DNA of 33,691 bases from Pirellula staleyi DSM 6068 (lineage in GTDB: Bacteria; Planctomycetota; Planctomycetia; Pirellulales; Pirellulaceae): assembly GCA_945900945.1 (NCBI GenBank), contig CAMDKL010000059.1:1-33691 (forward strand), given 5' to 3'. The translations under genes were made by a program, and so were the position numbers. Shown here in pieces: positions 1 to 18,701 of the stretch. The number at the start of each line of letters is the position of its first letter. Positions within the stretch are counted from its first letter, which is position 1. Under the pieces are notes generated by a model that had not been told where the DNA came from, did not search any database, and saw only the letters and a list, made by a program, of their open reading frames with translations.

Positions 1-1383
1 TCCACCGCCAACTCCGCCTCTACCTCCGCCTTGTCCGCCGCCCGGTCCACCGCCGCCCGGTCCACCGCCACCAGGTCCGCCTCTACCTCCGCCCGGTCCG
101 CCACCGTCCGGTCCTCCTCTGCCTCCGCCAGGTCCGCCACCGGCACCGCCTCGGCCACCACCACCGATTCCTCCTCCGCCGCCGCCTAATCCTCCTCCGC
201 CACCTCCGGCTGAAGCCCCGCCAGCGCCACCCGCACCAGCCCCATTGCCTCCCGCCACAGCGCCATTGGCTCGATACGCAATGATAAACGTTGCGAGATC
301 GTCTCCAACGGCTGTCGACAAGTCCGTTTGTAGTGTTGCCAAGTCCGAACCGTTAATGTTCACACGCGGAGTACCGTCCCCCGCAACATTCTTTTCCTTG
401 GAATACAAAGTCAAATAAATCGCCCAACCCAAATCTGGCAACTCAGCTTGTGTGCTCGAAGATCCCGTTGTCTCCGCGTTGGGTGTGGATCCGCTCGACG
501 CAGCAGCCATGGTCTCAGACTGCTCAAGAACCCCATTCCGATTTTGGTCCAAGCCAAAGAGCAGACTTGGGGTTACACCGCGAACAAGAAGCAACTGTTC
601 GATGGATTGCAGTGGACCATTGGCGGGCGCATAAGGAATTGGCAACTGAGTGTAGTAGTCTCTTTCTGCACCATACTCTCGCGGCTCATCGTCCGCGTCA
701 ATAAAATCAAGAATCGCATCAGCTACATCTTCGGTCATGCTCGGAAGCGCCATGAGAAGTGTTCTACCAGCTCCAGCCCCAGCACTTGTCCCACCAGAAC
801 CGGGGCCAGCAGCGGCACCTAATCCGGACGAAGAAGCACCCGAGGCACCTGCTCCCGCCCCAGTTGCTCCGCCCGCCGAAAGCCCCAAACTTGACAGGTC
901 CAAGCCACCCATTTGCTGTGCAATTTGGCCGATCGACATCATACTGTCGATAATAGGTAGAACATTCACGTTGAGACGTGCGGATTCATTGTGGAGCCCG
1001 AATCGATAACTTGCGTATTTGCCATTTTCATTCAGATCGGGAGCGACCAAAGAATAATTGCACAGGTTTCCTTGCCCTCGCCCAGTCAAGACCGGAATGG
1101 CTTGAAATGTATTCGCATTGCTATACGTTCCGCCCGAATCATCACGCGTTTGCCGTGGGGAAGCCAAAAAAAGTCGTGCTGCGTCTATTCCCGAATCCGC
1201 AGCATACCTCGCTTGGATCGATTCACCTGCCAATCGAGATTCCTCGTGGCCGATCAACATCGATTGTGAAAAAGCCAATGCGCTCAGCGTGATTGCCGCC
1301 AACACAAGCATCACCGCCAACAAAATAAATGCGTTGCGGTTCGCCTTTGTTGTTTCCAAGTTGCGTTTTTTCGTTTTGGTCAT
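1..1383 (-). CDS. gspK: Type II secretion minor pseudopilin GspK, partial (C-terminus beyond left edge)
   Basis: GspK-family minor pseudopilin, thought to sit at the tip of the T2SS pseudopilus with GspI and GspJ. Reading the minus strand from 1383 gives 461 residues with no stop before the edge. The N-terminus has a short basic leader, then NAFILLAVMLVLAAITLSAL, a class III signal segment; it lacks Glu5, as is usual for GspK. The GspK core is clear: ADAILDFIDADDEPREYGAE, then SIEQLLLVRGVTPSLL, and later PRVNINGSDL. A Gly/Ala/Ser-rich insert (about residues 170-205) precedes the core, and the visible C-terminus is a long Gly/Pro/Arg-rich tail of GPGGG and RGG type. An ATG at 1395 is 2 bases after the gspJ stop, but AAGGA is placed correctly only for the ATG at 1383, so 1383 is preferred. 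Confidence 0.9.
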   Translation of the reverse strand, partial: MTKTKKRNLETTKANRNAFILLAVMLVLAAITLSALAFSQSMLIGHEESRLAGESIQARYAADSGIDAARLFLASPRQTRDDSGGTYSNANTFQAIPVLTGRGQGNLCNYSLVAPDLNENGKYASYRFGLHNESARLNVNVLPIIDSMMSIGQIAQQMGGLDLSSLGLSAGGATGAGAGASGASSSGLGAAAGPGSGGTSAGAGAGRTLLMALPSMTEDVADAILDFIDADDEPREYGAERDYYTQLPIPYAPANGPLQSIEQLLLVRGVTPSLLFGLDQNRNGVLEQSETMAAASSGSTPNAETTGSSSTQAELPDLGWAIYLTLYSKEKNVAGDGTPRVNINGSDLATLQTDLSTAVGDDLATFIIAYRANGAVAGGNGAGAGGAGGASAGGGGGGLGGGGGGIGGGGRGGAGGGPGGGRGGPDGGGPGGGRGGPGGGGPGGGGPGGGQGGGRGGVGGG

Positions 1384-1397
1384 CGTCGTTTCCATCC

Positions 1398-2561
1398 TTA
1401 TAAACCCACGGAACTCATACCGTTATCCGTTGAACCCGAAGCTGTTGTCCCCTGAGGTGCGACAAGCAATTGTGCCCCAGGGATAATTGTATTTATTGAG
1501 TAAACTTCGATGCCGTATTCCTGCATCATGTCTGTCGTGATCGAGGAAACGGCTATCCCTGGATCCAGCGGTTTCGATTTTGCAAGGCTGTCACGTTGCA
1601 TGGCGATCGTGATCTTGACAACATGAGGGAGCCCTTGTTGACTGCCATCCCACTCCGTTTGCCAAGTCGCTCCATCAAAATATTGAAACTCCAACGCAAG
1701 CACTTCTGGTGCAATCAACTCGCCAGTCCTAAGCAATTGATCGCTCTGTGCGGCCTCGTACGCATATTGAGTTACAGCTCGATCCACCGAACGTCGAACT
1801 AGCCCGCCATTGGGCGATGCAATTGCACCGGTTGTCAGACTCGCTGCTTCTTGGCTAAGTTGCCCTAACGAATCCTGAACTCCATCGGAACGGGGAGACT
1901 GGACGTAATAGCCAACGGTTTTGACGTCGCTCGGCATGTCGCCAAGTGTTCCCGTCGATGTGTTTCCCATCTTAGGATAATACTCATCCGGGCGTGGTAA
2001 TCGACTTACATCAATTTCGATCGAAGTGCTTGATCCATAAATTCCCGGTGGAAGTGCCGCAGTAGCAGTCGAAGTGCTTGCCGCACTGGCTCCGCCACCT
2101 GACGCTCCGCCACCTGACGCTCCGCCACCTGACGCTCCGCCACCTGATGCTCCGCCACCTGATGATCCGCCACCTGATGATCCGCCACCTGATGATCCGC
2201 CACTTGGTGCTCCGCCACCAGACGCTCCACCACCAGACGCTCCACCACCAGACGCTCCACCACCAGACGCTCCGCCACCAGACCCAGTATCGGTTGATAA
2301 GAGTTGCACTAAACCACTCGTGTCAAATTTTTGATAGCGAACGGTCGTGCGAACGTCTTCGGCAATCATATTGAGGATGGCTCTGGCCATTTGAGCTTGC
2401 CGAACGCTATCGCGTCCCGTCTCTTGATTGATCAAATAGAGCTGAACCAAACTGCCAATCAGCCCGGCGATCACTGCGGTCAGAGCCAGCGACAATATCA
2501 ATTCCAAAAGCGTGAAAGCGGAGCGTGGTCGATAACGGAATGAATGCGTCGAACCAATCAT
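1398..2561 (-). CDS. gspJ: Type II secretion minor pseudopilin GspJ with Gly-rich repeat insert
   Basis: GspJ-family pseudopilin of 387 residues, a predicted inner-membrane-anchored subunit of the pseudopilus tip. The leader ends RSA followed by FTLLELILSLALTAVIAG, so Glu5 is present but the residue before the predicted cleavage is Ala rather than the usual Gly. ARAILNMIAEDVRTTV matches the start of the T2SSJ domain. Thirteen five-residue units of SGGGA/SGGGS type (about residues 93-157) separate the N-terminal helix from the globular part, which resumes with YYPKMGN and ends with a hydrophobic/Ser tail. The repeat makes the protein much longer than typical GspJ (about 200 residues). Its ATG overlaps the gspI stop as ATGA, so translation is probably coupled. 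gspK follows within a few bases. Confidence 0.9.
   Translation of the reverse strand: MIGSTHSFRYRPRSAFTLLELILSLALTAVIAGLIGSLVQLYLINQETGRDSVRQAQMARAILNMIAEDVRTTVRYQKFDTSGLVQLLSTDTGSGGGASGGGASGGGASGGGASGGGAPSGGSSGGGSSGGGSSGGGASGGGASGGGASGGGASGGGASAASTSTATAALPPGIYGSSTSIEIDVSRLPRPDEYYPKMGNTSTGTLGDMPSDVKTVGYYVQSPRSDGVQDSLGQLSQEAASLTTGAIASPNGGLVRRSVDRAVTQYAYEAAQSDQLLRTGELIAPEVLALEFQYFDGATWQTEWDGSQQGLPHVVKITIAMQRDSLAKSKPLDPGIAVSSITTDMMQEYGIEVYSINTIIPGAQLLVAPQGTTASGSTDNGMSSVGL
2089..2283. repeat. In-frame 15-bp minisatellite, 13 units, inside gspJ
   Basis: Thirteen consecutive 15-bp units (195 bp). On the plus strand they read mainly gctccgccacctgac, with variants gatccgccacctgat and gctccaccaccagac. 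The unit is a multiple of three, so copy number can change without shifting the frame. Variant units are clustered: an Ala-coding block, a Ser-coding block of three, then another Ala-coding block, which suggests local duplication by slippage. It is not a CRISPR array because there are no spacers. Confidence 0.95.
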
Positions 2562-3166
2562 TGAATGCCCCCTGCAGAACTAGATGAAGTGCCGCCCGAT
2601 GACGTGTCAGTCGTAGATGTTGTTTCCGGAGGAGTGTCCAGTCCCAGGCTGGGGTCGATCATCCATCGCACGATGTAAAACAATTCTGGATTTCCGTTCG
2701 TGGTATCCGGCTGATCGGTCACACTAAGTCGAACACCAATCATGTTGGGACGTTCTGCTGTCGTAGTCTGAATTTGATAATACCAACTACCCCTTCGGCC
2801 AGAGTCAGTAATTTGAGTCCAACTGGATGAAGTCAACGGAATCGCGCCCGCCAATACTTCTGACATTTTGGATTCGCAGAGCATCTGCGCTGTGGAAAGT
2901 CTTTTTGCCATGAGGCCGTTATCGGTCGCTTGTTTGGTTACCTGTGCCAGCAGAGCGGCGGCTACGGCCAAGATCGCAAGTGCCAGCACAACCTCGAGCA
3001 GTGACAAACCAGCACGGCGTAACTTACGCGGTTTGGTGCTAAAGTGTAGCTCGGCACTCCGTGCCGAGTTAAACGGCACGGAGTGCCGTTCTACACTGGT
3101 CGAGGTGACATCGACGCGGGAACAATTGAAGACAATTGTTCGACAATTTGGTTTTCTCGTTTGCAT
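2558..3166 (-). CDS. gspI: Type II secretion minor pseudopilin GspI with repeat-lengthened leader
   Basis: GspI-family pseudopilin, about 202 residues from the ATG at 3166. The prepilin motif is RRAG followed by LSLLEVVLALAILAVAAALL (Gly at -1 and Glu5 present). The globular part carries GspI-type features: a mid-region TAQMLCESKMSEVLAG, then SSWTQ and RLSVTDQ. The leader before cleavage would be 53 residues, far longer than the usual 5-15, because a palindromic repeat (3043-3097) is translated within it as roughly SVERHSVPFNSARSAELHFS. An in-frame TTG at 3205 would lengthen it further and overlap gspH, so the ATG, 25 bases after the gspH stop, is preferred. The C-terminus is Ser/Thr/Gly-rich. 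The stop overlaps the gspJ start. Confidence 0.85.
   Translation of the reverse strand: MQTRKPNCRTIVFNCSRVDVTSTSVERHSVPFNSARSAELHFSTKPRKLRRAGLSLLEVVLALAILAVAAALLAQVTKQATDNGLMAKRLSTAQMLCESKMSEVLAGAIPLTSSSWTQITDSGRRGSWYYQIQTTTAERPNMIGVRLSVTDQPDTTNGNPELFYIVRWMIDPSLGLDTPPETTSTTDTSSGGTSSSSAGGIQ
3043..3097. repeat. Palindromic repeat element embedded in gspI
   Basis: A 55-bp inverted repeat: agtgtag, an inner cggcactccgtgccg palindrome, a ttaaa centre, then cggcacggagtgccg and ctacact. Each half is itself a short palindrome and the two halves are mutually inverted, so DNA or RNA can fold into one long hairpin or two small ones. It lies wholly within the translated leader of GspI without breaking the frame. 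The structure resembles small dispersed bacterial palindromes such as REP or RPE elements. I believe similar motifs recur in planctomycete genomes but could not check. Confidence 0.85.
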
Positions 3167-3191
3167 AGTTTTGGCGCTTTCCAGACGGAGT

Positions 3192-3857
3192 TCATGGTGT
3201 AGCAACAGCGGCCAAACGCATCGACTTTAATTGACCCGTAACACCGCGAATTTGGATCGCCATGCGTCTCCCTTTTTCGTCGATCAAAATGATCTGAGCA
3301 GTAGTGCACGAGCCGTCGGGATAAAGCAACAGCGGAGACGAAAGACCAGATCCGTCCCCTTGAGATGAACCCCCGCCTGTCGGAACAGTTCCGCCCGATT
3401 GTTCAATCGCCAGTGCATTGCGAGAGTCAATCAGCGTTTCAACCATCGAAAACTGAACTCCCTCACTCAACTGCCTTGTGCTGCCGGAAGATTCCGATGT
3501 CGACACCGCACCGCCTCCGGTAGTCGCTTGCGTCTGTATCACTTGTCCCGATTGCATGACGGTTGCGCCGGCAGAGGCATCCTGAGCTTCACTGCCACCC
3601 AACCACGGGGAGATTGAATAATCTTTTCCTTGCAAGGTCATCCGGATGACTTGGGCCTGCCCCGTTCGCATGGCCGTAACCCGCCCTTCCATGATTTCAT
3701 TTCGGATTTTTTCGATAGACTGGCTCAGTCGACGACTGCTGACCATCGACTCAAACGACGGGATTGCAATGCCAGCAAACGCGACCAAGAGCGCCAACAC
3801 GAGCATCAACTCAAGCAGAGTAACTGCGTTTCGCTTGCTTGCTCGTATCTGAGGCAT
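3192..3857 (-). CDS. gspH: Type II secretion minor pseudopilin GspH
   Basis: GspH-family pseudopilin, 221 residues from the ATG at 3857 (MPQIRASKRNA). An in-frame TTG 18 bases upstream is possible, but GGAA about 8 bases before the ATG supports the shorter form. The hydrophobic helix VTLLELMLVLALLVAFAGIA follows Asn-Ala, so Glu5 is kept while the -1 residue is Ala rather than Gly. After the helix, IEKIRNEIMEGRVTAMRTGQ is typical of the alpha-helical part of GspH, followed by a beta-rich domain with a Gly/Ser-rich loop (STSESSGS and TGGGSSQGDGSG). It lies 26 bases after gspG and 25 bases before gspI. Confidence 0.85.
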   Translation of the reverse strand: MPQIRASKRNAVTLLELMLVLALLVAFAGIAIPSFESMVSSRRLSQSIEKIRNEIMEGRVTAMRTGQAQVIRMTLQGKDYSISPWLGGSEAQDASAGATVMQSGQVIQTQATTGGGAVSTSESSGSTRQLSEGVQFSMVETLIDSRNALAIEQSGGTVPTGGGSSQGDGSGLSSPLLLYPDGSCTTAQIILIDEKGRRMAIQIRGVTGQLKSMRLAAVATP

Positions 3858-3883
3858 GATCAGCGTTCCGTTCAAAAGTTCGT

Positions 3884-4294
3884 TTATGGGGTAATATCGT
3901 CAGCCGTCCCGGACTGGCCGTCCGGACCTACGCTAAGCAGAACAAATGAAGTTCCGTTGGGCTTGTAATCATAAGGTTTGTCCCACGGATCCTTCGGGAT
4001 TTCCTTGTCTAACTTCATCACCCAAAGGCTTGCGTCTGTAATATCGGCCGGTTGTGTGTGCAACGCTTCCAGAGCCGATGGCAAGTTCCCAACCTCAAGT
4101 TGGTATTCCTTCAATGAAGTCGAAAGAATGCCTAACGTGATTTTAGCTTGCTTCTTTTTGGCACCGTCTAAAGTGCCTTGTACTGCTCGAATACCAAACC
4201 CGGCGATGACCACCAAAATAATGAGGACCAAAAGCAGCTCCAAGAGCGTAAAACCACGGCGGATGCTTTTTCGGATATTCATTCTACGTTTCAT
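3884..4294 (-). CDS. gspG: Type II secretion major pseudopilin GspG
   Basis: Major pseudopilin, 136 residues, predicted to polymerise into the pseudopilus that pushes substrates through the outer membrane. It has the canonical prepilin site RRG followed by FTLLELLLVLIILVVIAGFG. The GspG core is complete: a long helix with QAKITLGILSTSLKEYQLEVG, then IPKDPWDKPYDYKP and the C-terminal LSVGPDGQSGTADDITP, which matches the conserved calcium-binding loop of GspG. The ATG at 4294 is chosen over an in-frame ATG at 4327 because AGGAG lies 7 bases upstream of it and the longer form would overlap gspF. This is the only pseudopilin in the cluster with both a Gly -1 site and a normal short leader. Confidence 0.95.
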   Translation of the reverse strand: MKRRMNIRKSIRRGFTLLELLLVLIILVVIAGFGIRAVQGTLDGAKKKQAKITLGILSTSLKEYQLEVGNLPSALEALHTQPADITDASLWVMKLDKEIPKDPWDKPYDYKPNGTSFVLLSVGPDGQSGTADDITP

Positions 4295-4316
4295 TCCAAA
4301 ACTCCTAATTTGAAAG

Positions 4317-5519
4317 TTACAGGGCATCTGAACTGTTGAGAATAGGCAGCATCAGGGCCAACACAACAAACATAACCATTCCTGCTAATATCAACAGCAT
4401 GATTGGTTCCAATAAGCGGACTACCGTCTCCAAACGACGAAAAGTAGTTCGCTCTAAATTTTCCGCTATCGTTACTAACACCGAATCGAGGCTGTTGGAC
4501 TCCTCAGCTACAGAAATCATTTCGACAACTGTCTGAGGGAAATGGCCGCTCTTTTCCAATTGCTTGGCCAATCGCTCGCCAGCAGTGATCTCTTCGCTTG
4601 CTGCTGCGATAGATTCCGCCAAAACGACGTTGCCTGCGGCTTGCCGACTGATCTCGAGAGAACGCAATATTGGGACGCCATTTTTCAAGAGTGTTCCTAG
4701 CACTTGACAAAATCTCGCGACGGCCAAGTTCAGAAAAACACTTCCCATCAGTGGTGTCTTGATCTTGAGCAAATCCAAATTGCGTTTGCCATTAATCGTC
4801 TTCAAATACTTGTTAATCACTAGCCCAATTAGAGCTACCGCGCCGAGGATAGCCCACCAATAATACTGAACGATTTTGCTGATCCCTAACAGGATCTCAG
4901 TCGCTTGTGGCAATTTTCCCTTGGCTCGCAATGCCCCAAATATGCCTTCGAATTGAGGCACGAAAAAGATGAGCAGGACCGTCACTACGACTACACCGAC
5001 GGACATGACGAAGACGGGATACGCAATCGCGCCCATTGTCTTGCCTTTGATTTCTTCTTGCTTCTCGACAAAACTGCCAACTCGCTCGAGTGCATCTTCG
5101 AGAAAACCACCTTCGCTACCGGCCCGGACCATGTTGATCGCCATGTCATTGAAAATGCGAGGGTAGCGAGCCATGGCTTCTCCCAACGCTTCACCCTCTT
5201 CGACTCGACCCCGAATTTCAGTGACAGCATTTTGAAGCGTTCGATTGCCGCCCGACTGATTTGACAATAAAGCCAATGTTCGCAACATAGGGACGCCAGC
5301 TCGGAGAAGCGATGCGCATTGTGCGTAAAAGCTTCCCATCTGAGCACCGGACACCCGCTTAGTCATCTTGACTTGCGAAGCTTTGTTGACTGTTATCGAG
5401 ATTGGAAATAGCGACTTTGCACCCAACTGAGTGGCCGCATCGCGCGCGTTTGCAGCGGCTATCGTTCCGGCGGAAGATTTGCCGGCCATGTCTCGTGCTA
5501 AGTATGCAAATTCAGGCAT
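4317..5519 (-). CDS. gspF: Type II secretion inner-membrane platform protein GspF
   Basis: GspF/PilC-family polytopic membrane protein, 400 residues (normal family length), which couples the GspE ATPase to pseudopilus assembly. Two T2SSF repeats are visible, beginning near residue 62 (GSFYAQCASLLRAGVPMLRT) and near 262 (FLNLAVARFCQVLGTLLKNG). Each has the family pattern of four helices and is followed by hydrophobic segments: AYPVFVMSVGVVVVTVLLIF, a second stretch around WWAILGAVALIGLVI, and a C-terminal MLLILAGMVMFVVLALML. The start MPEFAYLARD matches the family. No good Shine-Dalgarno precedes it. The 92-bp gap after gspE is mostly occupied by a palindromic repeat. Confidence 0.95.
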   Translation of the reverse strand: MPEFAYLARDMAGKSSAGTIAAANARDAATQLGAKSLFPISITVNKASQVKMTKRVSGAQMGSFYAQCASLLRAGVPMLRTLALLSNQSGGNRTLQNAVTEIRGRVEEGEALGEAMARYPRIFNDMAINMVRAGSEGGFLEDALERVGSFVEKQEEIKGKTMGAIAYPVFVMSVGVVVVTVLLIFFVPQFEGIFGALRAKGKLPQATEILLGISKIVQYYWWAILGAVALIGLVINKYLKTINGKRNLDLLKIKTPLMGSVFLNLAVARFCQVLGTLLKNGVPILRSLEISRQAAGNVVLAESIAAASEEITAGERLAKQLEKSGHFPQTVVEMISVAEESNSLDSVLVTIAENLERTTFRRLETVVRLLEPIMLLILAGMVMFVVLALMLPILNSSDAL

Positions 5520-5611: not shown

Positions 5612-7315
5612 CTAACCTAGCGAGTCCCCTTTCGTGGCTCGGAGCACTTCTTCCATGCTCGTCGTTCCCTCAATGGCTTTGCGAAATGCATCGTCTCTCA
5701 AAGTAAGCATACCATGTCGCAAGGCCGCTTTTTTGATTTCGAAACTACTGGCCCGATCATGGGCCAATTGGCGAACATCTTCGGTTGTCGCTAACAATTC
5801 GTAAATTCCGAAACGGCCCGCGTAACCCAGGTTTCGACAGGCCCTGCAACCTGTTGGTCGAAATAGTGGCTTTCCATCCAGTTTTTCCCATGGAAAATCC
5901 TTGGGAACCTCGTCGGTTGATGGATGATACGCTTGCTTGCATTCGACGCACAATCGACGAACTAGTCGCTGTGCCATGATTCCCTCAACGGTGCTCGCAA
6001 CCAAAAACGGTTCGATTCCCATATCGACAATTCGAGTAAATGCACCAGCCGCATCGTTGGTGTGCAAAGTGCTAAACACGGTGTGACCTGTGAGCGAAGC
6101 CTGGATGGCATTTTCGGCCGTTTCCGCGTCGCGGATTTCACCCACCAGAACAATGTCTGGGTCATGACGCAATATGCTTCGTAGCGAAACGGCAAACGTC
6201 AATCCAATTTTCGCATGGACTTGGATCTGGTTGATTCCATCGAGCTGATATTCAACAGGATCCTCTGTTGTAATGATCTTGTTCTCAGGCGATTTGATCT
6301 CAAGCAATGAACTGTACAGCGTCGTGGTCTTTCCGGAACCCGTTGGTCCGGTTACCAAGATGATTCCGTGCGGCAGGCGAATCAGCTCGCTGAAGAGCTT
6401 GTACGTCGCGTCGCCCATCCCCAAATTGCGTAGATCGAACTTCATCGAGCCTTTGTCGAGGATACGCATGACCAAGCTTTCGCCATGGATCATCGGTATA
6501 ACGGACACCCGGATATCGATCTCGCGGCCATGCACTCGCAGCTTGATTCGTCCGTCCTGTGGCAACCGCTTTTCAGCGATATTCAGGTGAGCCATGATCT
6601 TGAGTCTCGAGATGATGGCTGCTTGAAAGCGATTGATTTCAGGCGGAATAGCTTGGGAGTGCAAAATACCGTCGATACGATATCGGACCACGATCCCTGC
6701 GGCTTGTGATTCAATGTGAACATCGCTAGCACGCGTATCGATCGCTTCAACCAACAGCTCATTCACCAAGCGAACCACGGAAGCTTCTTGAGCTTGTTCG
6801 CCCAGCTCGCTACCATCCGCTTCGATCTTCTCGAGCAACTCAATTTCGGCGTCTTCATCCGATTTCGAGGCCATGAGCCCTTCGACGGTTTCGCTGCCTA
6901 CGCCAAGGTGTTTCTTGACCAGCTTTGCGATTTCATCTTTTTCTGCAACCAGCGGAACAACAGCTAGACCTGTGGCCGCAGACGCTTCGTCGAGCGCATA
7001 CAGATCCAACGGATTACTCGTCGCAACGAATAACTGCCCACCCTCGCGTTTGACTGGAAACAAGGCATGGCGGTAGATGAGCTTGAGCGGAAATGTTTGC
7101 AACAACGCTAGATCTACGTTGGCTTCTCGAAGATCGATGAAATCGAGTCCGAATTCCTCCGCCACAACCCTTAGGGCGTCCTCTTCTTTTGCGAAGCCTG
7201 CTTTGATAACGCTTTCAAGGATGCCGCCACCATTCGCGGTTGCGCGAGATTGTTGAAGTTGTTCGCGGTTGATCAGACCGCGTCGGAGTAGGATTTCGCC
7301 AGCTTCTGTAATCAT
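5612..7315 (-). CDS. gspE: Type II secretion ATPase GspE
   Basis: Cytoplasmic hexameric ATPase that powers pseudopilus assembly, 567 residues. The N-terminal region (about 1-140; GEILLRRGLINREQL and LRVVAEEFGLDFIDL) is an MshEN/T2SSE-N type domain. The ATPase core has Walker A GPTGSGKTTT (about 323-332), the Asp box IITTEDPVEYQLDG, Walker B DIVLVGEIRD (about 387-396) and the His box LTGHTVFSTLHTNDA. A four-cysteine zinc site is present as CVEC (about 456-459) and CRAC (about 490-493), the usual GspE/PilB form. The ATG at 7315 gives the family-typical MITEAGEILLRRG start, although no clear Shine-Dalgarno is seen. It follows the gspD-like gene by 83 bases. Confidence 0.95.
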   Translation of the reverse strand: MITEAGEILLRRGLINREQLQQSRATANGGGILESVIKAGFAKEEDALRVVAEEFGLDFIDLREANVDLALLQTFPLKLIYRHALFPVKREGGQLFVATSNPLDLYALDEASAATGLAVVPLVAEKDEIAKLVKKHLGVGSETVEGLMASKSDEDAEIELLEKIEADGSELGEQAQEASVVRLVNELLVEAIDTRASDVHIESQAAGIVVRYRIDGILHSQAIPPEINRFQAAIISRLKIMAHLNIAEKRLPQDGRIKLRVHGREIDIRVSVIPMIHGESLVMRILDKGSMKFDLRNLGMGDATYKLFSELIRLPHGIILVTGPTGSGKTTTLYSSLLEIKSPENKIITTEDPVEYQLDGINQIQVHAKIGLTFAVSLRSILRHDPDIVLVGEIRDAETAENAIQASLTGHTVFSTLHTNDAAGAFTRIVDMGIEPFLVASTVEGIMAQRLVRRLCVECKQAYHPSTDEVPKDFPWEKLDGKPLFRPTGCRACRNLGYAGRFGIYELLATTEDVRQLAHDRASSFEIKKAALRHGMLTLRDDAFRKAIEGTTSMEEVLRATKGDSLG

Positions 7316-7357: not shown

Positions 7358-7411
7358 GGGCGATAGCCCAAGGTTGTCATCTTTACCACAACCGGCGGCT
7401 AACGGCCGCCT
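7358..7411. repeat. Small palindromes at the 3' end of the secretin-like gene
   Basis: Two short inverted repeats sit at the junction of the gspD-like gene and gspE. One is gggcgatagccc (7358-7369). The other, ggcggc-taacg-gccgcc (7395-7411), straddles the stop codon of the gspD-like gene. They may act as a processing or stabilising signal between D and E, or be remnants of dispersed palindromes. There is no T-run. Confidence 0.5.
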
Positions 7412-10400
7412 CGGCCACCACCTTGAGTACCACCGCCTCCGCGTTGACCGCCGCCTCCGCGTTGACCGCCGCCTTGATTTCCGCCACCACCAAAACCACC
7501 GGCGTTGCCTCCACGCTGGCCACCGCCACCCTGGGCACCACCGAATCCTCCTCCACCGAATCCGCCACCGCCGCCTGGAAATCCACCACCACCAAAGCCG
7601 CCACCGCCTGGAGCTCCGCCCCCACCCGCCCGATTTCGGAACTGCTGTAGGAAATCAGCAGGATTACCCGCAGCGCCCGTTGCGCCTTGGGTTGCATTTG
7701 TGCCCGAAGCAGTACTTGTTTTTACACTCGCACCAAACGCAGATTTTAGCGCATTTTGCATCGTTGTGGCATTCACTTCGGCAGGCATGGGCACGACGAT
7801 GAACGATGGATCGTCGTCTTCTGAAGCCTGGTCAAGCTCTTCAACCAACTTCTTGACATCCTGGAAAAGCATCGGGGGTGCGACCACGATGAGCGCATTG
7901 TTCTTTTTGTCTGAGCTGACCGTCATTGTCTGCTCTTTTAGCTCCTTTTGAGCAGCACCGCCACCGCCGCCACCTCGACGTCCACCACCACCACCACCTA
8001 TAAGTTGAAGAATCTCTTGGGGTGATGGCTGACGTTGTGCACCCGCGCCTGGAGCCGAGCCAATTCGATCCGCGAAAACTTGCTTGACAATCGCTTCGAT
8101 GTCGGCGACCGGGACATTGTTGATGAAGATGGTTTCAGGAGTTCCTCGAGTCAAATTCACGATCCCGCTGTCTGGAATATCGATCATTAAGACCAAATCT
8201 TCGACCATTTGCATGTCGGATCCATTGGCCTGAACCCAAAGCGCGTTGAGTCGGGGATCCGGGGTAATTACTACGTTTCCGGTCGCTGCTGCGCCTGTGA
8301 TAGCCGAACTGCTGCTAGCACTACTCCCACCGCCGCCGCCACCAAAAAGACTACCGAAGATTCCGCCACCGCCCAAGACACTCGAGGCTACGTCACCGAG
8401 AAGTCCCCCACCGCCACCACCGCCAGTTGCTGCCTCGCCGGCGATAATACTCTGGATCAACTCGGCTGCAGCCGCAGCTTTAATGTGTTTCAAGACAATG
8501 ACGGCCGGTTCAGCGGGTGCATTGGCCATCTGCTCTTGAGCAATTTTATACAGTTGATTGAACTCCCTGAGAGCATCTGGGTTTTCACTGGTGACGATCA
8601 AACCGTTTGGACCGCGACGGATCACGATTTCGTCAAAAAGTCCGCCTTTCGACTGAGCGTTTGCTGCTGCAGCCACGGGCTTAGTCTGCTGCGGGCTTTC
8701 GCTTTCCTGGGCAACCGTTACAAATTTGGAAAATGGGTTGGTAGGACGACCATACAATGCGCTTCGGCCATCCGTCGGATTTTTCGGTGCAGGAACTGGC
8801 TCGTCAGCGGCTTTCTCACCATTATTGATTTTGGATTCCCCTGGCGGTAGGACCATGCGGAAACGCGACTTGCTCTTCCTGGCATCCATGAGCAATTGTA
8901 TTTGCTCCAACATGCGATCTGCTGATTTGCCTTTGAATGGCAGCAGGAGCAATCCATCCATCAAACTTTCCGCTTCAGGACTCGAAGCCTCGACCGTAGT
9001 CAACAGTGTTCGAATTTGTGCGACTTCCTCTTTGGTCCCCTTCACCATGATTCGCTTCGAAGCAGCGTCGCCGTAGAAAATAGGTCCTTTCGCGGTGGCC
9101 GCATCTTTGCTTTGCTTACCAAAGAACTTTTCCAATGTCAAAATAGCTGCTTGCGTGTCTAGCTTCGTTAACTGAATGACTTCGAAATCACTGTTTTGAC
9201 CTGCAAGTTCGGCAATGATCGCTTCTATCTTTTCGTGATCTTCCTTAGTCGAGAAAGCGAGAATATTATTGGTCTTCGGATCGCTCGATAGCTTCATATT
9301 GGTCTGACCAGAAAAGGTCGATTGGAGCACGTCCATCGTAGTGGACGGATCCGAACCGAGCAGCCGATGGGTCTTGAAATAAGGTGGATCCGCAACCGTA
9401 GCCTTGGCTGCTTCGTCGCTCGGCTTTACGTCGATTTCAGTAGTGATGTCTCGCAATATTTGAAGCTTGTCTGCGGTTCCTGTCGCATAAATGGTATTGC
9501 CAAACGTGTCCGTCGACATACTAAATACATCCGACGTGTTCAAACCATCCTTAAGTCCCAGCAACGGTCTTGCAATGCCCAGTATTTCGTCTGCGCTAAC
9601 ATACTTCAAAGGGAGAGTCACGATCTTTGCAGACCGAGCCCCATTCGGCTTTTCCGACCGCTCGATCAAGTCACGAATGATTCGTAATTTGCCACCCGTC
9701 TCGCAAACGAGTACTTGGCTAGCCGTTGGCAACGGCACAACAGACCCCTGAGGTCCAATCAGCAACTTGACCTCCTTTTCGATCTCCTCCACAGTGGATC
9801 GCTCCAGCGTAAACACGCTTTTAACGATTTCGTAGTCGCCGCGTTTGTCCAAATCTTCCGGGGCGACCAATTCCGCCAACTCGCGAACGAGTAGTCGAAT
9901 TACATCGGCAGATTCACCGCTGCCCAAATCGACGCTGATTAGTATCCGCTGTTTCTTGACTAGTGTGTAGCCTTTACCAAGCAAGACACCATTCATGATA
10001 TCCATCGTTTCAGCGACCGAATATCGACGGTAGGGATCCCGATAGGTAAACGTTCCCGTCGGATATGCGTCGCCTTGCAAACTCAATTCCGCTTCTTTCG
10101 CAAGCCACTTGAGGACTTCGCTCCATGGAGCAGCGTTGAAATTAATGCTGAGTCCATCCTCAGGGCCAATCATTTTTGGCTTTAGTTTCACCGCGACATC
10201 CGACGTCAATGGTGCACTTTGCGAGACACCGCTTTCTAAAGAGACACCGCTTTCTGAAGAGACTGCGTTTTCGACCTTCGTGTCACTTCGCAATGGCTTG
10301 CCGATCAATGCCTGCCAAGCCGTTCGCTGCGATTCGTCGAGAATCGCTAGAATGCGTGAATTCAGTTCGGCAGTTGCTTTGATCGGACCCAATTCGCGAT

Positions 10401-10860
10401 TGAGTATCGATTTTCCTTCAAGGATGTTTTTGATTTTTGCGATTTGCTCCTCGCTAACCCCCATAAGAATGGCAACCTGAGGCTCCAACAGTGCCGCCGG
10501 CCCGAGTTTTTGCAGACGCCACTTTTCGGCTGTCGACTGTTGAGCTTCGGTCAGAAGTGCAAATCCTTGCTTTTCGACAGATCGAATGCTTTCCGACTTC
10601 TTGGTTCGCTGTTCCGCAGATGGCAGCTGTCGAATCTGGCTGGAAAACGTTAATGCTTGGCTTTCATGCTGCTTTATTAACGCATTCAACCTGTCTAATT
10701 GGTCTTGTGTTAATCCGAGTTCTGATGCGTTTCCTGGCTCGGTAATGGAAGCCAAAACACCCACAAGATCTGGGTCGGATGCATTGATACAGGCTGTGCC
10801 AGAAGCAAAAAATGCGGAAAAGGCAAGGAGACTGTTTCTGAGTAGGTTTTTGGTTTGCAT
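7399..10860 (-). CDS. GspD-position protein: multi-module secretin N-domain protein, no recognisable barrel
   Basis: Secreted protein of 1153 residues from the ATG at 10860; an in-frame TTG lies upstream, but MQTKNLLRNSLLAFSAFFAS gives a proper signal peptide. After a helical region (about 30-190) with two LT/VS-x-x-Q-type segments comes an N0-like domain (SINFNAAPWSEVLKWLAKEA) and then about seven or eight secretin-N-like modules. Their recurring pattern is L-x-x-A-x-E followed by a V-x-x-x-N-x-L strand, e.g. IVTLPLKYVSADEILGIARP, VIVLKHIKAAAAAELIQSII and TIFINNVPVADIEAIVKQVF. The rest is Gly-rich: loops around GGGGGGGLLGD and RRGGGGGG, and a tail of about 80 residues of GGGGF/GGQRGGGG type. 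No VPxLGDIPxLGxLF-like motif or other secretin barrel signature appears. It heads the operon in the gspD position, so it is called a secretin-like component rather than a confirmed channel. Confidence 0.8.
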   Translation of the reverse strand: MQTKNLLRNSLLAFSAFFASGTACINASDPDLVGVLASITEPGNASELGLTQDQLDRLNALIKQHESQALTFSSQIRQLPSAEQRTKKSESIRSVEKQGFALLTEAQQSTAEKWRLQKLGPAALLEPQVAILMGVSEEQIAKIKNILEGKSILNRELGPIKATAELNSRILAILDESQRTAWQALIGKPLRSDTKVENAVSSESGVSLESGVSQSAPLTSDVAVKLKPKMIGPEDGLSINFNAAPWSEVLKWLAKEAELSLQGDAYPTGTFTYRDPYRRYSVAETMDIMNGVLLGKGYTLVKKQRILISVDLGSGESADVIRLLVRELAELVAPEDLDKRGDYEIVKSVFTLERSTVEEIEKEVKLLIGPQGSVVPLPTASQVLVCETGGKLRIIRDLIERSEKPNGARSAKIVTLPLKYVSADEILGIARPLLGLKDGLNTSDVFSMSTDTFGNTIYATGTADKLQILRDITTEIDVKPSDEAAKATVADPPYFKTHRLLGSDPSTTMDVLQSTFSGQTNMKLSSDPKTNNILAFSTKEDHEKIEAIIAELAGQNSDFEVIQLTKLDTQAAILTLEKFFGKQSKDAATAKGPIFYGDAASKRIMVKGTKEEVAQIRTLLTTVEASSPEAESLMDGLLLLPFKGKSADRMLEQIQLLMDARKSKSRFRMVLPPGESKINNGEKAADEPVPAPKNPTDGRSALYGRPTNPFSKFVTVAQESESPQQTKPVAAAANAQSKGGLFDEIVIRRGPNGLIVTSENPDALREFNQLYKIAQEQMANAPAEPAVIVLKHIKAAAAAELIQSIIAGEAATGGGGGGGLLGDVASSVLGGGGIFGSLFGGGGGGSSASSSSAITGAAATGNVVITPDPRLNALWVQANGSDMQMVEDLVLMIDIPDSGIVNLTRGTPETIFINNVPVADIEAIVKQVFADRIGSAPGAGAQRQPSPQEILQLIGGGGGGRRGGGGGGAAQKELKEQTMTVSSDKKNNALIVVAPPMLFQDVKKLVEELDQASEDDDPSFIVVPMPAEVNATTMQNALKSAFGASVKTSTASGTNATQGATGAAGNPADFLQQFRNRAGGGGAPGGGGFGGGGFPGGGGGFGGGGFGGAQGGGGQRGGNAGGFGGGGNQGGGQRGGGGQRGGGGTQGGGRGGR

Positions 10861-15440: not shown

Positions 15441-16604
15441 CTACGAGACGGCCATGATCTGCTGCGCGAGCCGGATTCCTGTCGCCTGCATGAAGTCGGA
15501 TGGGATTCGCGGACCGTTGGACAAATAGCTGATTGGCAACGAGCTACTTTGCAAACACGAAAAAAACTCGCCCAAACCACCCGATTCATCTAGTCGCGTG
15601 AGTATCATTCTATTGGGATTGAGTCGTTCGAAGCCTTGCTCATATCGGAGAAACGATCGAACGTTGCAAGTGCTTGGAATCACTAAATGCGTTTCTTTGG
15701 GTTCGGTTGCGATCAAAAGCGCGTTCACCCGATCCATCGATTCGGTATCGCCGGGCGAGCATCCACATGTATCAATCAGAACAAAGCGGCAACCGACGAA
15801 GCCCTCCCTACACAAAGGCAACTGTTCGACGGAATCCACAAAATCAAAATGCCAGCCAAATACTTCGGCGCAATTTTGCAATAGGTGGTTTGACCCTAAT
15901 CGCACCGAATCTAAGGAAAGCACTCCGACGGAATATCCGCATTGCATCGAAAGGTTGGCAGCGAGTTTCGCGAGCGTCGTTGTTTTTCCAACGCCAGATG
16001 GGCCTACCAATGCGATAACCTGTTGTCGTGAATCATCCATTTCGAACGGCGGTGCGACATGAACGAAATCGCGAATCAAGTTTTGAAGTTCGGAGCGAAG
16101 CGTCCAAACATCTTGCATTATTGCGGGATCATTGGAATAACGGATGGCCTCCATCCATTGACAGGCAATGCTCGGGGCGATTCCTGCATCGATCAGTTCT
16201 TGATGAACCTGTTTAATCACGCGCTCTGGGCCATCGAACTCAATCGCCGCTGCTCTACATTCATTGCAATCTGGATCACTGCAATCTGGATCACCCATGT
16301 CTGCAATTCGGTAGCCTTGGTCAGGTTCTTCCGTAGAGGTTGCCTGGAATTTTTCTGGCTCTGAATTTTGATTTGGTTCAGTGTGCCTTATGAAATCCCA
16401 TGGGTTCTGGTCGACGTCGCTGGGATGGAGCTCTTTTGTTGTGTTGCTAGCAGTCACTTCGATTCGAGAGAGTCCGAAGATTCCGTATCGCGCAGCCTTG
16501 GTTTCTAAAATCGAAGCGTCCGGACCAAATTCAGTCCTGATCTGCTGAAAGGCATCCTGAAGCGTTCTTGAGCGAAAGGTTTTAATACGAATGGGAGAGT
16601 TCAT
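15441..16604 (-). CDS. flhF: Flagellar SRP-like GTPase FlhF (divergent)
   Basis: FlhF-family protein of 387 residues, normally the GTPase that sets flagellar position and number at the membrane. The N-terminal IRIKTFRSRTLQDAFQQIRT and FGPDASILETK stretch matches FlhF. The NG domain has the P-loop GPSGVGKTTTLAKLA (from about 201), LDSVRLGSNHLLQNCAEVFG in place of the usual DTYRIGA-EQL motif, DTCGCSPGD in place of DTAG-R-D, and TRLDES in place of TKLDE. The linker holds a Cys cluster (C108, C113, C116) created by a 15-bp duplication. It starts 18 bases after the flhA stop. flhG does not follow. Confidence 0.88.
   Translation of the reverse strand: MNSPIRIKTFRSRTLQDAFQQIRTEFGPDASILETKAARYGIFGLSRIEVTASNTTKELHPSDVDQNPWDFIRHTEPNQNSEPEKFQATSTEEPDQGYRIADMGDPDCSDPDCNECRAAAIEFDGPERVIKQVHQELIDAGIAPSIACQWMEAIRYSNDPAIMQDVWTLRSELQNLIRDFVHVAPPFEMDDSRQQVIALVGPSGVGKTTTLAKLAANLSMQCGYSVGVLSLDSVRLGSNHLLQNCAEVFGWHFDFVDSVEQLPLCREGFVGCRFVLIDTCGCSPGDTESMDRVNALLIATEPKETHLVIPSTCNVRSFLRYEQGFERLNPNRMILTRLDESGGLGEFFSCLQSSSLPISYLSNGPRIPSDFMQATGIRLAQQIMAVS
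16265..16294. repeat. 15-bp tandem duplication within flhF
   Basis: Two adjacent copies of tgcaatctggatcac (16265-16279 and 16280-16294, plus strand). On the coding strand they give Asp-Pro-Asp-Cys-Ser followed by Asp-Pro-Asp-Cys, doubling a Cys-containing acidic motif in the linker before the NG domain. Identical copies and retained frame suggest a recent duplication. Confidence 0.9.
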
Positions 16605-16622
16605 TTTTTAGGCGATTTTACC

Positions 16623-18701
16623 TTAATGGTCACTGACCATAGCAATGGATTCGACACTCGTATCTCTTGATATTTCGTTGTAACTGAGAACACGGAGGTC
16701 CGGCAATGCCTCATGTGTTATCTGTCGAAGCGGTACTCGAATTTTTGGACTGACGACAACACATCTCGGTTTTCCAATCTGGTCTAGTTTCTTGAGTTGA
16801 TCGGCAATTCGATTGCATGTTTTGGAAATCGCGTCGGGCGACATGCGGATGAAGATGCCACGGTCGGTCTGTTCGGTACCGGCTGCGATGCGATCCTCCA
16901 TCGCCGGGTCGAGAGTTATCACTCGCAACACACCAGAACTATCGCGATACCGGTGCGATATCGTTCTGGCCAATCGATGGCGAACGTATTCGGTTAACCA
17001 AATCGGGTCTTTGATCCTATGTGCGTAGTCGCCGAGCGTTTCGAGAATGATGCTAAGCTGCCGAATGGGAATATCTTCACGAAGTAGGTTTTGAAGAACT
17101 TGCTGAACCTCTGCAAGTTTCATTTGCCCCGGTATCAACTCATCGACAACGGTCGAGGATGACTTCTTGAGTTGATCAATAAGCTGTTTCGTGACTTCGC
17201 GAGTCAGCAGTTCATCCGCATGCTTCCTGGCCGTTTCTTGGACATGCGTTGCCAGGACTGCACCGCACTCGACAACTTGGTAGCCGTAGATTTCGGCCTG
17301 CTGACGGTTTCTCGGATCGATCCAAACGGCTCGTTTACCAAACGCCGGATCGGTTGTCTCGTCTCCCGGGATGGAGCCCTTGGTGAGGCCCGTGTCGATC
17401 GCTAGTAATCGATCAGGTCGAAGAGTTCCTGTTGCGATTCGATTTCCCGCCATTTCAAGTTCATAGGTATACTCAGGCAAACTCATTCGATCCTTGATCC
17501 GGACCATGGGCAGCAGCACGCCCATCTCCGTTGCAAGTGTGGCTCGCACGGTCGAGATACGTTTCATGAGGTCGCCGCCACGATTTGGATCTGCCAACAC
17601 GATCAGTTGGGCGCCCAGTTCCAGACGCAACGGGTCTACTTCTAAGTAGTCTTCGACTTTCTTCTCGGACGGAGCTTTCTTGGCATGGTCATCGTCTTGG
17701 GCCTTCTTCTGGACCCATTGTGCGTCTTGTTTTTTCTGTCGTTGCATTATCAGTGCCAATCCAATGCACCCGCCCCCCATGGTTACCATCGGGATAGCAG
17801 GAAGCTGGGTAAAAGTCATCAGGAGCAAGAAGACTCCAGAGATAATCAACGCTTGGGGACGCGAAAAGATCTGACGCAAAAACTCGCCAGAGAAATCCGA
17901 TTTTTGTGTACTTCGGGTTGTTAACAATGCGGCCGCCAACGAAATCAAAAACGCTGGCACTTGGCTGGCCAGTCCGTCACCGATGGTAAGCTTTGTATAG
18001 ACGTTAGCCGCTTGCGTCAGCGTCATGCCCGAGTACATGTAACCCATGTATAGCCCGCCAACAATGTTGAGCAGGGTGATCGCGATACCCGCGATTGCGT
18101 CTCCGCGTACAAACTTACTAGCACCGTCCATCGAACCATAAAAATCTGCTTGCTTCGTGATTTCCTCTCGGCGGCGTTGTGCTTCTTTTTCGTCGATTGC
18201 ACCAGCGCTCAAGTCGGCGTCAATGGCCATCTGACGTCCTGGCATACCGTCCAATGCAAATCGTGCGGCAACCTCTCCAATTCGCGAAGCACCCTTCGTA
18301 ATAACGATGAAATTGATCAAAAAGATGATAATGAACAGGACGATCCCAACCTCGAGGGAGTCACCGGACACGAACTCTCCGAAGGCTTGAATGACGTGCC
18401 CAGCAGCGTCGATTCCCTCCGAGCCTGTCCGCGTCAAGATCAATCGCGTCGTGGCTAAGTTCAGCACCAGCCGCGACAGAGTCGTGGCAACCAGCATCGC
18501 CGGAAAAATATTGAATTCAAGCGGAGATTCGATGTAAATTGTCGTCAAGAGGATGACGACGGCAATTGCGATATTCGCGGAAAGCAACACATCGAGCAAG
18601 GCCGGGGGGAGCGGAACCAGAATTACCACGAGACAGCCGATGATCCCAATCGGAACAATTGCATGCCGGTGTCGCAGAAATAATTTCGTCCAAAAATCCA
18701 T
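16623..18701 (-). CDS. flhA: Flagellar export gate protein FlhA
   Basis: FlhA/FHIPEP family, 692 residues, the large inner-membrane export gate of the flagellar type III apparatus. The N-terminal half has about eight membrane segments starting at AIVPIGIIGCLVVILVPLPP. The FHIPEP signature is clear: VITKGASRIGEVAARFALDG, then MPGRQMAIDADLSAGAIDE and a charged RRREE run. GDGLASQVPAFLISLAAALL precedes the last membrane segments. The cytoplasmic half (from about 330) carries LEVDPLRLELGAQLI, PGDETTDPAFG and RDSSGVLRVITLDP, matching the FlhA-C domain. A short Lys-rich linker separates the halves. It precedes flhF by 18 bases and is the first gene of its transcription direction. Confidence 0.95.
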   Translation of the reverse strand: MDFWTKLFLRHRHAIVPIGIIGCLVVILVPLPPALLDVLLSANIAIAVVILLTTIYIESPLEFNIFPAMLVATTLSRLVLNLATTRLILTRTGSEGIDAAGHVIQAFGEFVSGDSLEVGIVLFIIIFLINFIVITKGASRIGEVAARFALDGMPGRQMAIDADLSAGAIDEKEAQRRREEITKQADFYGSMDGASKFVRGDAIAGIAITLLNIVGGLYMGYMYSGMTLTQAANVYTKLTIGDGLASQVPAFLISLAAALLTTRSTQKSDFSGEFLRQIFSRPQALIISGVFLLLMTFTQLPAIPMVTMGGGCIGLALIMQRQKKQDAQWVQKKAQDDDHAKKAPSEKKVEDYLEVDPLRLELGAQLIVLADPNRGGDLMKRISTVRATLATEMGVLLPMVRIKDRMSLPEYTYELEMAGNRIATGTLRPDRLLAIDTGLTKGSIPGDETTDPAFGKRAVWIDPRNRQQAEIYGYQVVECGAVLATHVQETARKHADELLTREVTKQLIDQLKKSSSTVVDELIPGQMKLAEVQQVLQNLLREDIPIRQLSIILETLGDYAHRIKDPIWLTEYVRHRLARTISHRYRDSSGVLRVITLDPAMEDRIAAGTEQTDRGIFIRMSPDAISKTCNRIADQLKKLDQIGKPRCVVVSPKIRVPLRQITHEALPDLRVLSYNEISRDTSVESIAMVSDH

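What the first reader, a model, noticed from the sequence alone, without database searches (positions are those of the whole stretch)
7399..10860. GspD-position gene has many secretin-N-like modules but no visible secretin barrel
Established: secretins end in a C-terminal beta-barrel with a recognisable VPxLGDIPxLGxLF-type stretch. Seen: about seven or eight N-domain-like repeats, then only a Gly-rich tail. Inference: either the channel is another protein or this is a long periplasmic ring/stalk stack adapted to the wide planctomycete periplasm.
Basis: partly seen in the sequence, partly recalled or inferred. Interest (0 to 1): 0.7.

Follow-up and report, generated by a model that had tools for sequence, protein, structure and literature searches.

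The report
Two-part secretin in planctomycete secretion system
This gene makes a long stack of ring-forming domains without the pore-forming end that such proteins normally have, and in some related bacteria the same gene cluster ends with a second protein that has the pore, so these bacteria probably build their secretion channel from two proteins instead of one.

Summary
The protein (1153 aa, window 7399-10860, minus strand; "D") has a helical domain, an N0 domain, six clear Secretin_N domains, one atypical one and a half-domain, then a 61% Gly tail. Pfam, a custom barrel profile and AlphaFold2 show no secretin barrel. None of 91 distinct D proteins that end in their own stop codon has one, so truncation is excluded. 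D heads a T2SS-like operon (E-F-G-H-I-J-K).

In five relatives the same operon runs on through L and M to a second secretin ("S") with several N domains and a normal barrel. In the window's order (Pirellulales), 19 of 19 S proteins examined have the barrel and 0 of 19 have N0. A paralogous second system repeats the plan with a 1600-3700-aa barrel-less protein ("D2"). The window's genome has both S types on other contigs. Best explanation: a two-protein secretin, D docking at the inner membrane and S forming the outer-membrane channel. Against a simple split: in another family of the same class S keeps N0 although D is present. D-S contact is inferred, not shown. Rhizobial T3SS split secretins are a precedent, so this is a new variant of a known kind.

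The parts
7399..10860 (-). D: barrel-less multi-N-domain GspD-like protein, 1153 aa
10780..10860 (-). signal-peptide-like N-terminus of D (residues 1-27; judged by eye, no predictor run)
   Evidence: N-termini of 30 homologues listed
10291..10782 (-). N-terminal all-helical domain of D (residues about 27-190), no PDB match at E<=0.001; 13 related stand-alone proteins of 245-378 aa in loci of relatives
9907..10164 (-). N0 domain of D (residues 233-318)
   Evidence: weak direct PDB hits to secretin N0
8980..9834 (-). four consecutive N-type (KH-like) domains of D, residues 343-627
8521..8952 (-). atypical N-type domain of D, residues 637-780, interrupted by a disordered linker 675-741
   Evidence: not found by the N-domain HMM
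7813..8511 (-). two N-type domains with Gly-rich insertions, residues 784-1016
7402..7797 (-). half N-type domain (marginal) and Gly-rich tail (residues about 1022-1153), mostly predicted disordered; place where a barrel would follow in a secretin
5612..7315 (-). GspE-like ATPase with MshEN domain
4317..5519 (-). GspF-like platform protein
3884..4327 (-). GspG-like major pseudopilin
3192..3875 (-). GspH-like pseudopilin
   Evidence: weak
2558..3205 (-). GspI-like pseudopilin
1398..2561 (-). GspJ-like pseudopilin
   Evidence: weak
1..1395 (-). GspK-like protein, cut by the contig end

Best explanation
D is the inner-membrane-proximal half of a two-protein T2SS secretin. Shown: D has N0 and about seven N-type domains and no barrel, and its homologues with a complete 3' end have none either; the same operon in several relatives ends in S, a secretin with 5-8 N domains and a barrel; the Pirellulales S proteins examined have no N0. 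Inferred: D is exported, oligomerises through its N domains into a stack of rings, docks by N0 on the inner-membrane platform (GspL/M-like; no GspC was seen), and meets the lowest N ring of S. S inserts in the outer membrane and is the gated channel. The pseudopilus (G-K) driven by E and F works inside this composite tube. In the window's genome the predicted partner is the 1276-aa S on contig C33.
For: No barrel in D. Of 101 distinct D proteins over 400 aa in the loci scanned (the window's included), 91 end in their own stop codon and 0 of these 91 have a barrel; 101 of 101 have N0 (the N0 profile was built from D). 0 of 21 have PF00263 in Pfam. N0 versus barrel in 25 chosen genomes, six frames: 35 N0 frames in 17 genomes, 34 without PF00263 (E<=1e-10) in the same frame; the exception is the small GspD on own contig C161 (crossed by eye). 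S: 14 of 14 scanned have PF00263 and list no N0 family at E<=0.5; 19 of 19 distinct full-length S from the window's order have the barrel, 0 of 19 N0; hhalign of N0 against their profile 0.4% probability, against six S of another family 98.6%. Operon D to M then S in G028, G027 (I not detected) and G048, and in G107 and G128. Second system D2 to M then S in G030 and G036 (H and I not detected in G036), partly in G037, D2 beside S in G024. Tree: within the window's family, S linked to D2 and S linked to D fall in separate clades. Co-occurrence over 60 genomes: 49 both, 2 D only, 0 S only, 9 neither (thresholds chosen after seeing the data; genomes not independent).
Against: In family f21 of the same class, S keeps N0 although a barrel-less D heads the same operon, so D did not arise just to supply N0. 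In the window's own genus D and S were not linked in any genome searched: they lie on different contigs, or about 460 kb apart in closed genome G006. G031 and G046 have D but no S at E<=1e-50. In G041, G042, G052, G059 and G030 the D gene is not next to E-F. Outside the window's family the D/D2 pairing with S clades is unresolved: S of G037, G048, G053 and G055 fall in neither clade. No oligomer or D-S interface was modelled; the D model has pTM 0.34 and 326 residues under pLDDT 50. A direct profile search of N0 against the PDB gave secretin N0 domains on top but only at E 0.28-0.83.
Confidence: 0.6

Rival explanations
1. D is an accessory ring or scaffold, not part of the channel wall: a barrel-less ring stack that sits at the inner membrane around the pseudopilus (compare SpoIIIAG or FliF-type rings, from recall) or clamps the machine to the peptidoglycan, while S alone spans to the outer membrane.
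For: In family f21 S is complete (N0 to barrel) and D is still present in the operon of G107 and G128. D carries a helical N-terminal domain with 13 related stand-alone proteins in loci of relatives, and D3, a third barrel-less paralogue, exists.
Against: In the window's order the S proteins examined have no N0, which is what would be expected if D took over docking.
Confidence: 0.27
2. The channel for this system is the ordinary barrel-bearing GspD of the second, compact T2SS on contig C161, or another unrelated secretin of the genome.
For: The genome holds several PF00263 proteins, and C161 carries T2SS genes with a 666-aa GspD that has N0 and barrel.
Against: Matches of 64% identity or more to the C161 GspD were found in only 3 of 60 genomes (own, G003, G012), whereas 51 of 60 have a D-family match at E<=1e-20; S, not this GspD, sits in the D operons.
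Confidence: 0.05
3. D is itself the outer-membrane channel through an unrecognised barrel made by its Gly-rich C-terminus.
For: The consensus of the D alignments keeps a Gly-rich tail.
Against: No strands predicted after residue 994, tail pLDDT under 50; no barrel profile hit in 91 D proteins with a complete 3' end.
Confidence: 0.03
4. Truncated gene, frameshift or assembly error that removed the barrel.
For: Window is a contig of a 313-contig assembly.
Against: 0 of 91 distinct D proteins with their own stop codon have a barrel; 83 nt separate D from E and no frame of the window has a barrel.
Confidence: 0.01

Closest known systems
Split secretin of Rhizobium-type T3SS (RhcC1/RhcC2, HrcIIC1/HrcIIC2)
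   Same: Two genes, one for an N-terminal part and one for the barrel part of a secretin, in one secretion system (PMC3574062 passages; PMC4500985 whole text).
   Different: T3SS, not T2SS; RhcC1 is a short remnant and RhcC2 a Tad-like secretin by PMC4500985, while here the N part has about eight domains and the barrel part matches T2SS secretin structures best and has many N domains.
Mitochondrial T2SS (GspD plus GspDN1-3)
   Same: T2SS-derived secretin split between polypeptides (PMC8134430 passages).
   Different: Eukaryotic; N0 seems to be lost altogether; N parts are single or half domains.
T2SS secretin GspD (PulD, XcpQ, EpsD)
   Same: N0-N1-N2 architecture; best Foldseek matches are PulD and XcpQ/GspD N domains; profile matches N domains of GspD structures.
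   Different: Barrel absent; 115 bits against the family cut-off of 351; about twice as many N domains (N0-N3 in GspD, from recall).
Thermus PilQ and Deinococcus secretin (PDB 8co1)
   Same: Long stack of N rings; PilQ with six rings called one of the largest characterised (PMC5745081 passages and one section); 8co1 is a profile hit.
   Different: PilQ is a single chain that ends in a barrel; the same is taken for 8co1, whose entry was seen only as a hit.

Membership tests
Secretin (PF00263 / GspD) | C-terminal secretin barrel | tested here: not met
   homologues
Secretin (PF00263 / GspD) | N0 followed by repeated N (KH-like) domains | tested here: met
Secretin (PF00263 / GspD) | curated GspD cut-off (TIGR02517, 351 bits) | tested here: not met
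   115 bits
Secretin (PF00263 / GspD) | oligomeric ring in the cell envelope | not testable with these tools
   no oligomer modelling; bench work needed
Type II secretion system (gene cluster) | GspE, F, G and minor pseudopilins incl. K beside a secretin-type gene | tested here: met
   (E and F just under or under NCBIfam equivalog cut-offs; H and J weak); L and M seen only in relatives, L by a PilM_2 match under its cut-off, M by position
Type II secretion system (gene cluster) | GspC | tested here: inconclusive
   no GspC family among the Pfam results; not searched for with a GspC profile
Split secretin (Rhc-T3SS kind) | N-terminal and barrel parts on two genes of one system | tested here: met
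   for the clusters; 56, 57, 74, 76 for the domain division in the window's order; in the window's own genome the two genes are on different contigs; in family f21 S is complete
Split secretin (Rhc-T3SS kind) | the two parts work in one channel | not testable with these tools
   needs interaction or structure data
Split secretin (Rhc-T3SS kind) | T3SS gene cluster | tested here: not met
   cluster is T2SS-like

The most novel reading that the evidence does not exclude
The D-S and D2-S assemblies are the machines inside the two kinds of crateriform structures of planctomycetes (outer-membrane pits, some of them tied to the inner membrane, with 12-nm or 6-nm fibres; PMC5394234 passages): composite tubes of about 15 (D-S) to 25 or more (D2-S) stacked N rings that tie the inner membrane to the wall and extrude fibres or proteins. 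Some other planctomycetes would build the same tube as one giant secretin of 4000-5000 aa with 42-47 N domains.
Probability: 0.17. Interest if true: 0.88.

Novelty: new variant of a known kind. Interest (0 to 1): 0.7.

Why it matters
Secretins are normally one chain that both docks at the inner membrane and forms the outer-membrane channel. Here docking domain and channel seem to have been parted between two proteins, in two paralogous systems of the same genomes, with the number of stacked ring domains raised well above the six of Thermus PilQ. If true it gives a natural system to ask how a secretin stack is divided, matched and assembled, and a testable candidate for what lies inside planctomycete crateriform structures. 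My eight searches of the open-access library were seen as listings of 3 to 40 titles; I read passages of eight papers, one section of one of these and the whole of one more. None of this described it. Subscription papers and preprints were not covered.

Tried and rejected
Truncation or assembly error: rejected, 0 of 91 D proteins with a complete 3' end has a barrel. Compact GspD on C161 as partner: unlikely, close matches in 3 of 60 genomes. Helical N-terminal domain: AlphaFold2 pLDDT 92 but no Foldseek match in the PDB (best E 5.6); function left open. GspC: none seen, not searched with a profile. Simple gene fission as origin: weakened, because S of family f21 still has N0, beside a barrel-less D in G107 and G128; duplication followed by N0 loss in S fits better, and the S of the window's order form one group in the tree (support 91/94, under the program's 95 mark). 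Protein after S (333-459 aa, eight examined) has no Pfam family over its cut-off. Paper searches for precedents in planctomycetes showed nothing on target in the titles listed.
Full report
WHAT WAS CHECKED. The window is a whole contig (C59, 33,691 bp) of a 6.47-Mb, 313-contig assembly. Among the named loci the closest matches are planctomycetes, many labelled Pirellula, so I take the window's order to be Pirellulales. Pfam gives Secretin_N (8.5e-48, six stretches) and no PF00263 at E<=1. NCBIfam's GspD model matches at 115 bits, cut-off 351. A barrel HMM built here from 14 S proteins and three other secretins of the genome finds nothing in six frames of the window (best E 0.97). Controls score 3e-52 to 5e-70, though they were in its training set. 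AlphaFold2 with 57 sequences (mean pLDDT 72.5, pTM 0.34) shows a helical domain (30-187), an N0 fold (237-311), seven N-type folds to residue 1015, a half-domain, and mostly disorder from about 1048. Foldseek's best PDB matches are PulD, XcpQ and GspD chains, among them crystal structures of N domains alone. A D profile against PDB sequences hits 15 distinct secretin sequences; in 5wq7, for example, its best stretch is 101-244, where the S profile's best stretch is the barrel, 406-578.

IT IS NOT AN ACCIDENT. Of 60 genomes (own included), 54 have a match at E<=0.001. In the genome collection 122 places were confirmed and 80 kept; their titles are planctomycete except two titled only 'bacterium'. 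Among 21 aligned D proteins, 21 have Secretin_N, 0 have PF00263 and 6 match the Pfam N0 family weakly (best E 0.0031). Among 101 distinct D proteins over 400 aa in the loci scanned (the window's and six of family f21 included), 101 have N0, 0 have a barrel and 75 have the helical N-terminal domain. Ten of the 101 are cut at their 3' end, so the fair count is 0 of 91; 84 are complete at both ends. The N0 profile was built from D, so the 101 is not an independent test; its hit to the compact GspD of the same genome (2.8e-18) is. Against the PDB an N0 profile ranks PilQ and XcpQ N0 first but only at E 0.28 to 0.83.

THE PARTNER. In G028, G027 and G048 the D operon runs E to K, then a PilM-like L and an M-position protein, then a second secretin S of 1298-1411 aa (I not detected in G027; in G048 one gene on the other strand and one relative of the helical domain lie between D and E). 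L was recognised by a PilM_2 match under its cut-off; M is named by position. In G107 and G128, of another family (f21) of the same class, the order is D-E-F-G-H-I-J-K-L-M-S on one strand. A second, paralogous system repeats the plan with D2, a barrel-less N0 protein of 2070 aa in G030 and 2433 aa in G036 (H and I not detected in G036). It is partial in G037 (D2 1614 aa; E, G, H not detected), and D2 lies divergently beside S in G024. In G055 D3, D and S are neighbours. In the tree of barrel regions, S genes near D2 in G030, G033, G036 and G024 group with own C223 (97/96), and those in D operons of G027 and G028 group with own C33 (100/99). S of G037 (near D2) and of G048, G053 and G055 (near D) fall in neither clade. 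The window's genome holds both S types: C33, 1276 aa, and C223, 1038 aa. In the window's own genus D and S were not linked in any genome searched.

DIVISION OF DOMAINS. All 14 S proteins scanned have PF00263 and Secretin_N and none lists an N0 family at E<=0.5. Of 19 distinct full-length S from the window's order, 19 have the barrel and 0 have N0; hhalign of N0 against their profile gives 0.4% probability, against six S of family f21 98.6%. A six-frame search of 25 chosen genomes found 35 N0 frames in 17 of them. Crossed by eye with the PF00263 places at E<=1e-10, 34 of 35 lack a barrel in the same frame; the exception is the compact GspD on own C161. That N0 profile leans towards D, so secretins with very divergent N0 would be missed. 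Across the 60 genomes, taking D-family matches at E<=1e-20 and S at E<=1e-50 (or 33), 49 have both, 2 D only (G031, G046), 0 S only, 9 neither; Fisher p = 3.7e-9. The thresholds were set after seeing the tables (G025, 80% complete, has a D-family match at 2e-15 and counts as neither), the weakest D matches are to D2 or D3, and related genomes are not independent.

HOW IT PROBABLY WORKS. Shown: domain contents, operon order, co-occurrence. From established knowledge: N domains stack as rings, N0 is the inner-membrane-facing end, the barrel is the outer-membrane channel (PMC5745081 passages and one section). Inferred: D forms the lower ring stack and docks by N0; S forms the upper stack and channel; pseudopilus G-K works inside. 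The Gly-rich insertions of the last two D domains sit inside the N-type folds; a role as gate or joint is a guess. The main fact against a plain split is family f21, where S keeps N0. I read this as duplication of a secretin into a barrel-less copy, with later loss of N0 in the S of the window's order, which form one group (91/94). An accessory-ring role for D remains open.

A WIDER PATTERN. In two other planctomycete genomes of the phylum the secretin is a single giant chain. One is 4213 aa with 42 Secretin_N stretches and a barrel by Pfam; it follows two genes that weakly match L and M (28 and 19 bits). The other is 5073 aa with 47 N domains and a barrel by the custom profiles. A barrel-less D2 of G033 is 3749 aa with 27 Pfam stretches or 45 by the custom profile. 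Of 159 genomes drawn from the phylum, 20 had an N0 match at E<=1e-6 with the D-leaning profile. Growth of the ring stack thus seems to recur in the phylum, in one piece or in two.

WHAT IS KNOWN. Split secretins are described for Rhizobium-type T3SS and for the mitochondrial T2SS of some protists. I saw no account of a split or barrel-less T2SS secretin in planctomycetes in the open-access searches (listings). Crateriform structures, at least some of them tied to the inner membrane, with 12-nm or 6-nm fibres are described in Planctopirus limnophila (passages). Linking them to D and S is my speculation.

Noticed in passing
L188:2096-14737 (G170) and L187:2308-17529 (G093): Single-chain giant secretins of 4213 and 5073 aa with N0, 42-47 Secretin_N-type domains and a C-terminal barrel; the first follows two genes that weakly match L and M.
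   Followed up: partly
L163:3037-14286 (G033): Barrel-less D2 protein of 3749 aa with 27 Pfam Secretin_N stretches (45 by a custom profile).
   Followed up: partly
window 10291-10782 (-) and for example L090:6567-7454, L149:16057-16794: Helical domain at the N-terminus of D has 13 stand-alone relatives of 245-378 aa in loci of relatives, several of them between D and E; confident AlphaFold2 model, no PDB match.
   Followed up: partly
L049 (own contig C161): A second, compact T2SS cluster with an ordinary 666-aa GspD (N0 and barrel); matches of 64% identity or more in only 3 of 60 genomes, and its barrel groups with family f21 (100/98), which may mean transfer.
   Followed up: partly
L046:1054-4086 (own contig C220) and L146:5405-8680: D3, a third barrel-less N0-bearing multi-N protein of about 1000 aa; beside D and S in G055; no T2SS gene matched in the 7 kb read around it in the window's genome.
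   Followed up: no
window 5612-7315 (-): The GspE-like ATPase carries an MshEN domain (6.8e-19), a domain tied to cyclic-di-GMP binding in other ATPases (recalled).
   Followed up: no
window 1-1395 (-) and L054, L061, L062, L068-L082: GspK-like proteins of the nearest relatives are 806-926 aa where not cut, far longer than the roughly 300 aa of model GspK (recalled).
   Followed up: no
own contigs C240 (end) and C119 (start): Two open frames of the D2 type run off contig ends (715 and 1343 aa in the stretches read); probably one gene broken by the assembly, not joined here.
   Followed up: no
window 15441-18701 (-): An SRP54-type GTPase (FlhF-like by position, recalled) and an FHIPEP (FlhA-type) flagellar export gene lie some 5 kb from the D gene.
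   Followed up: no
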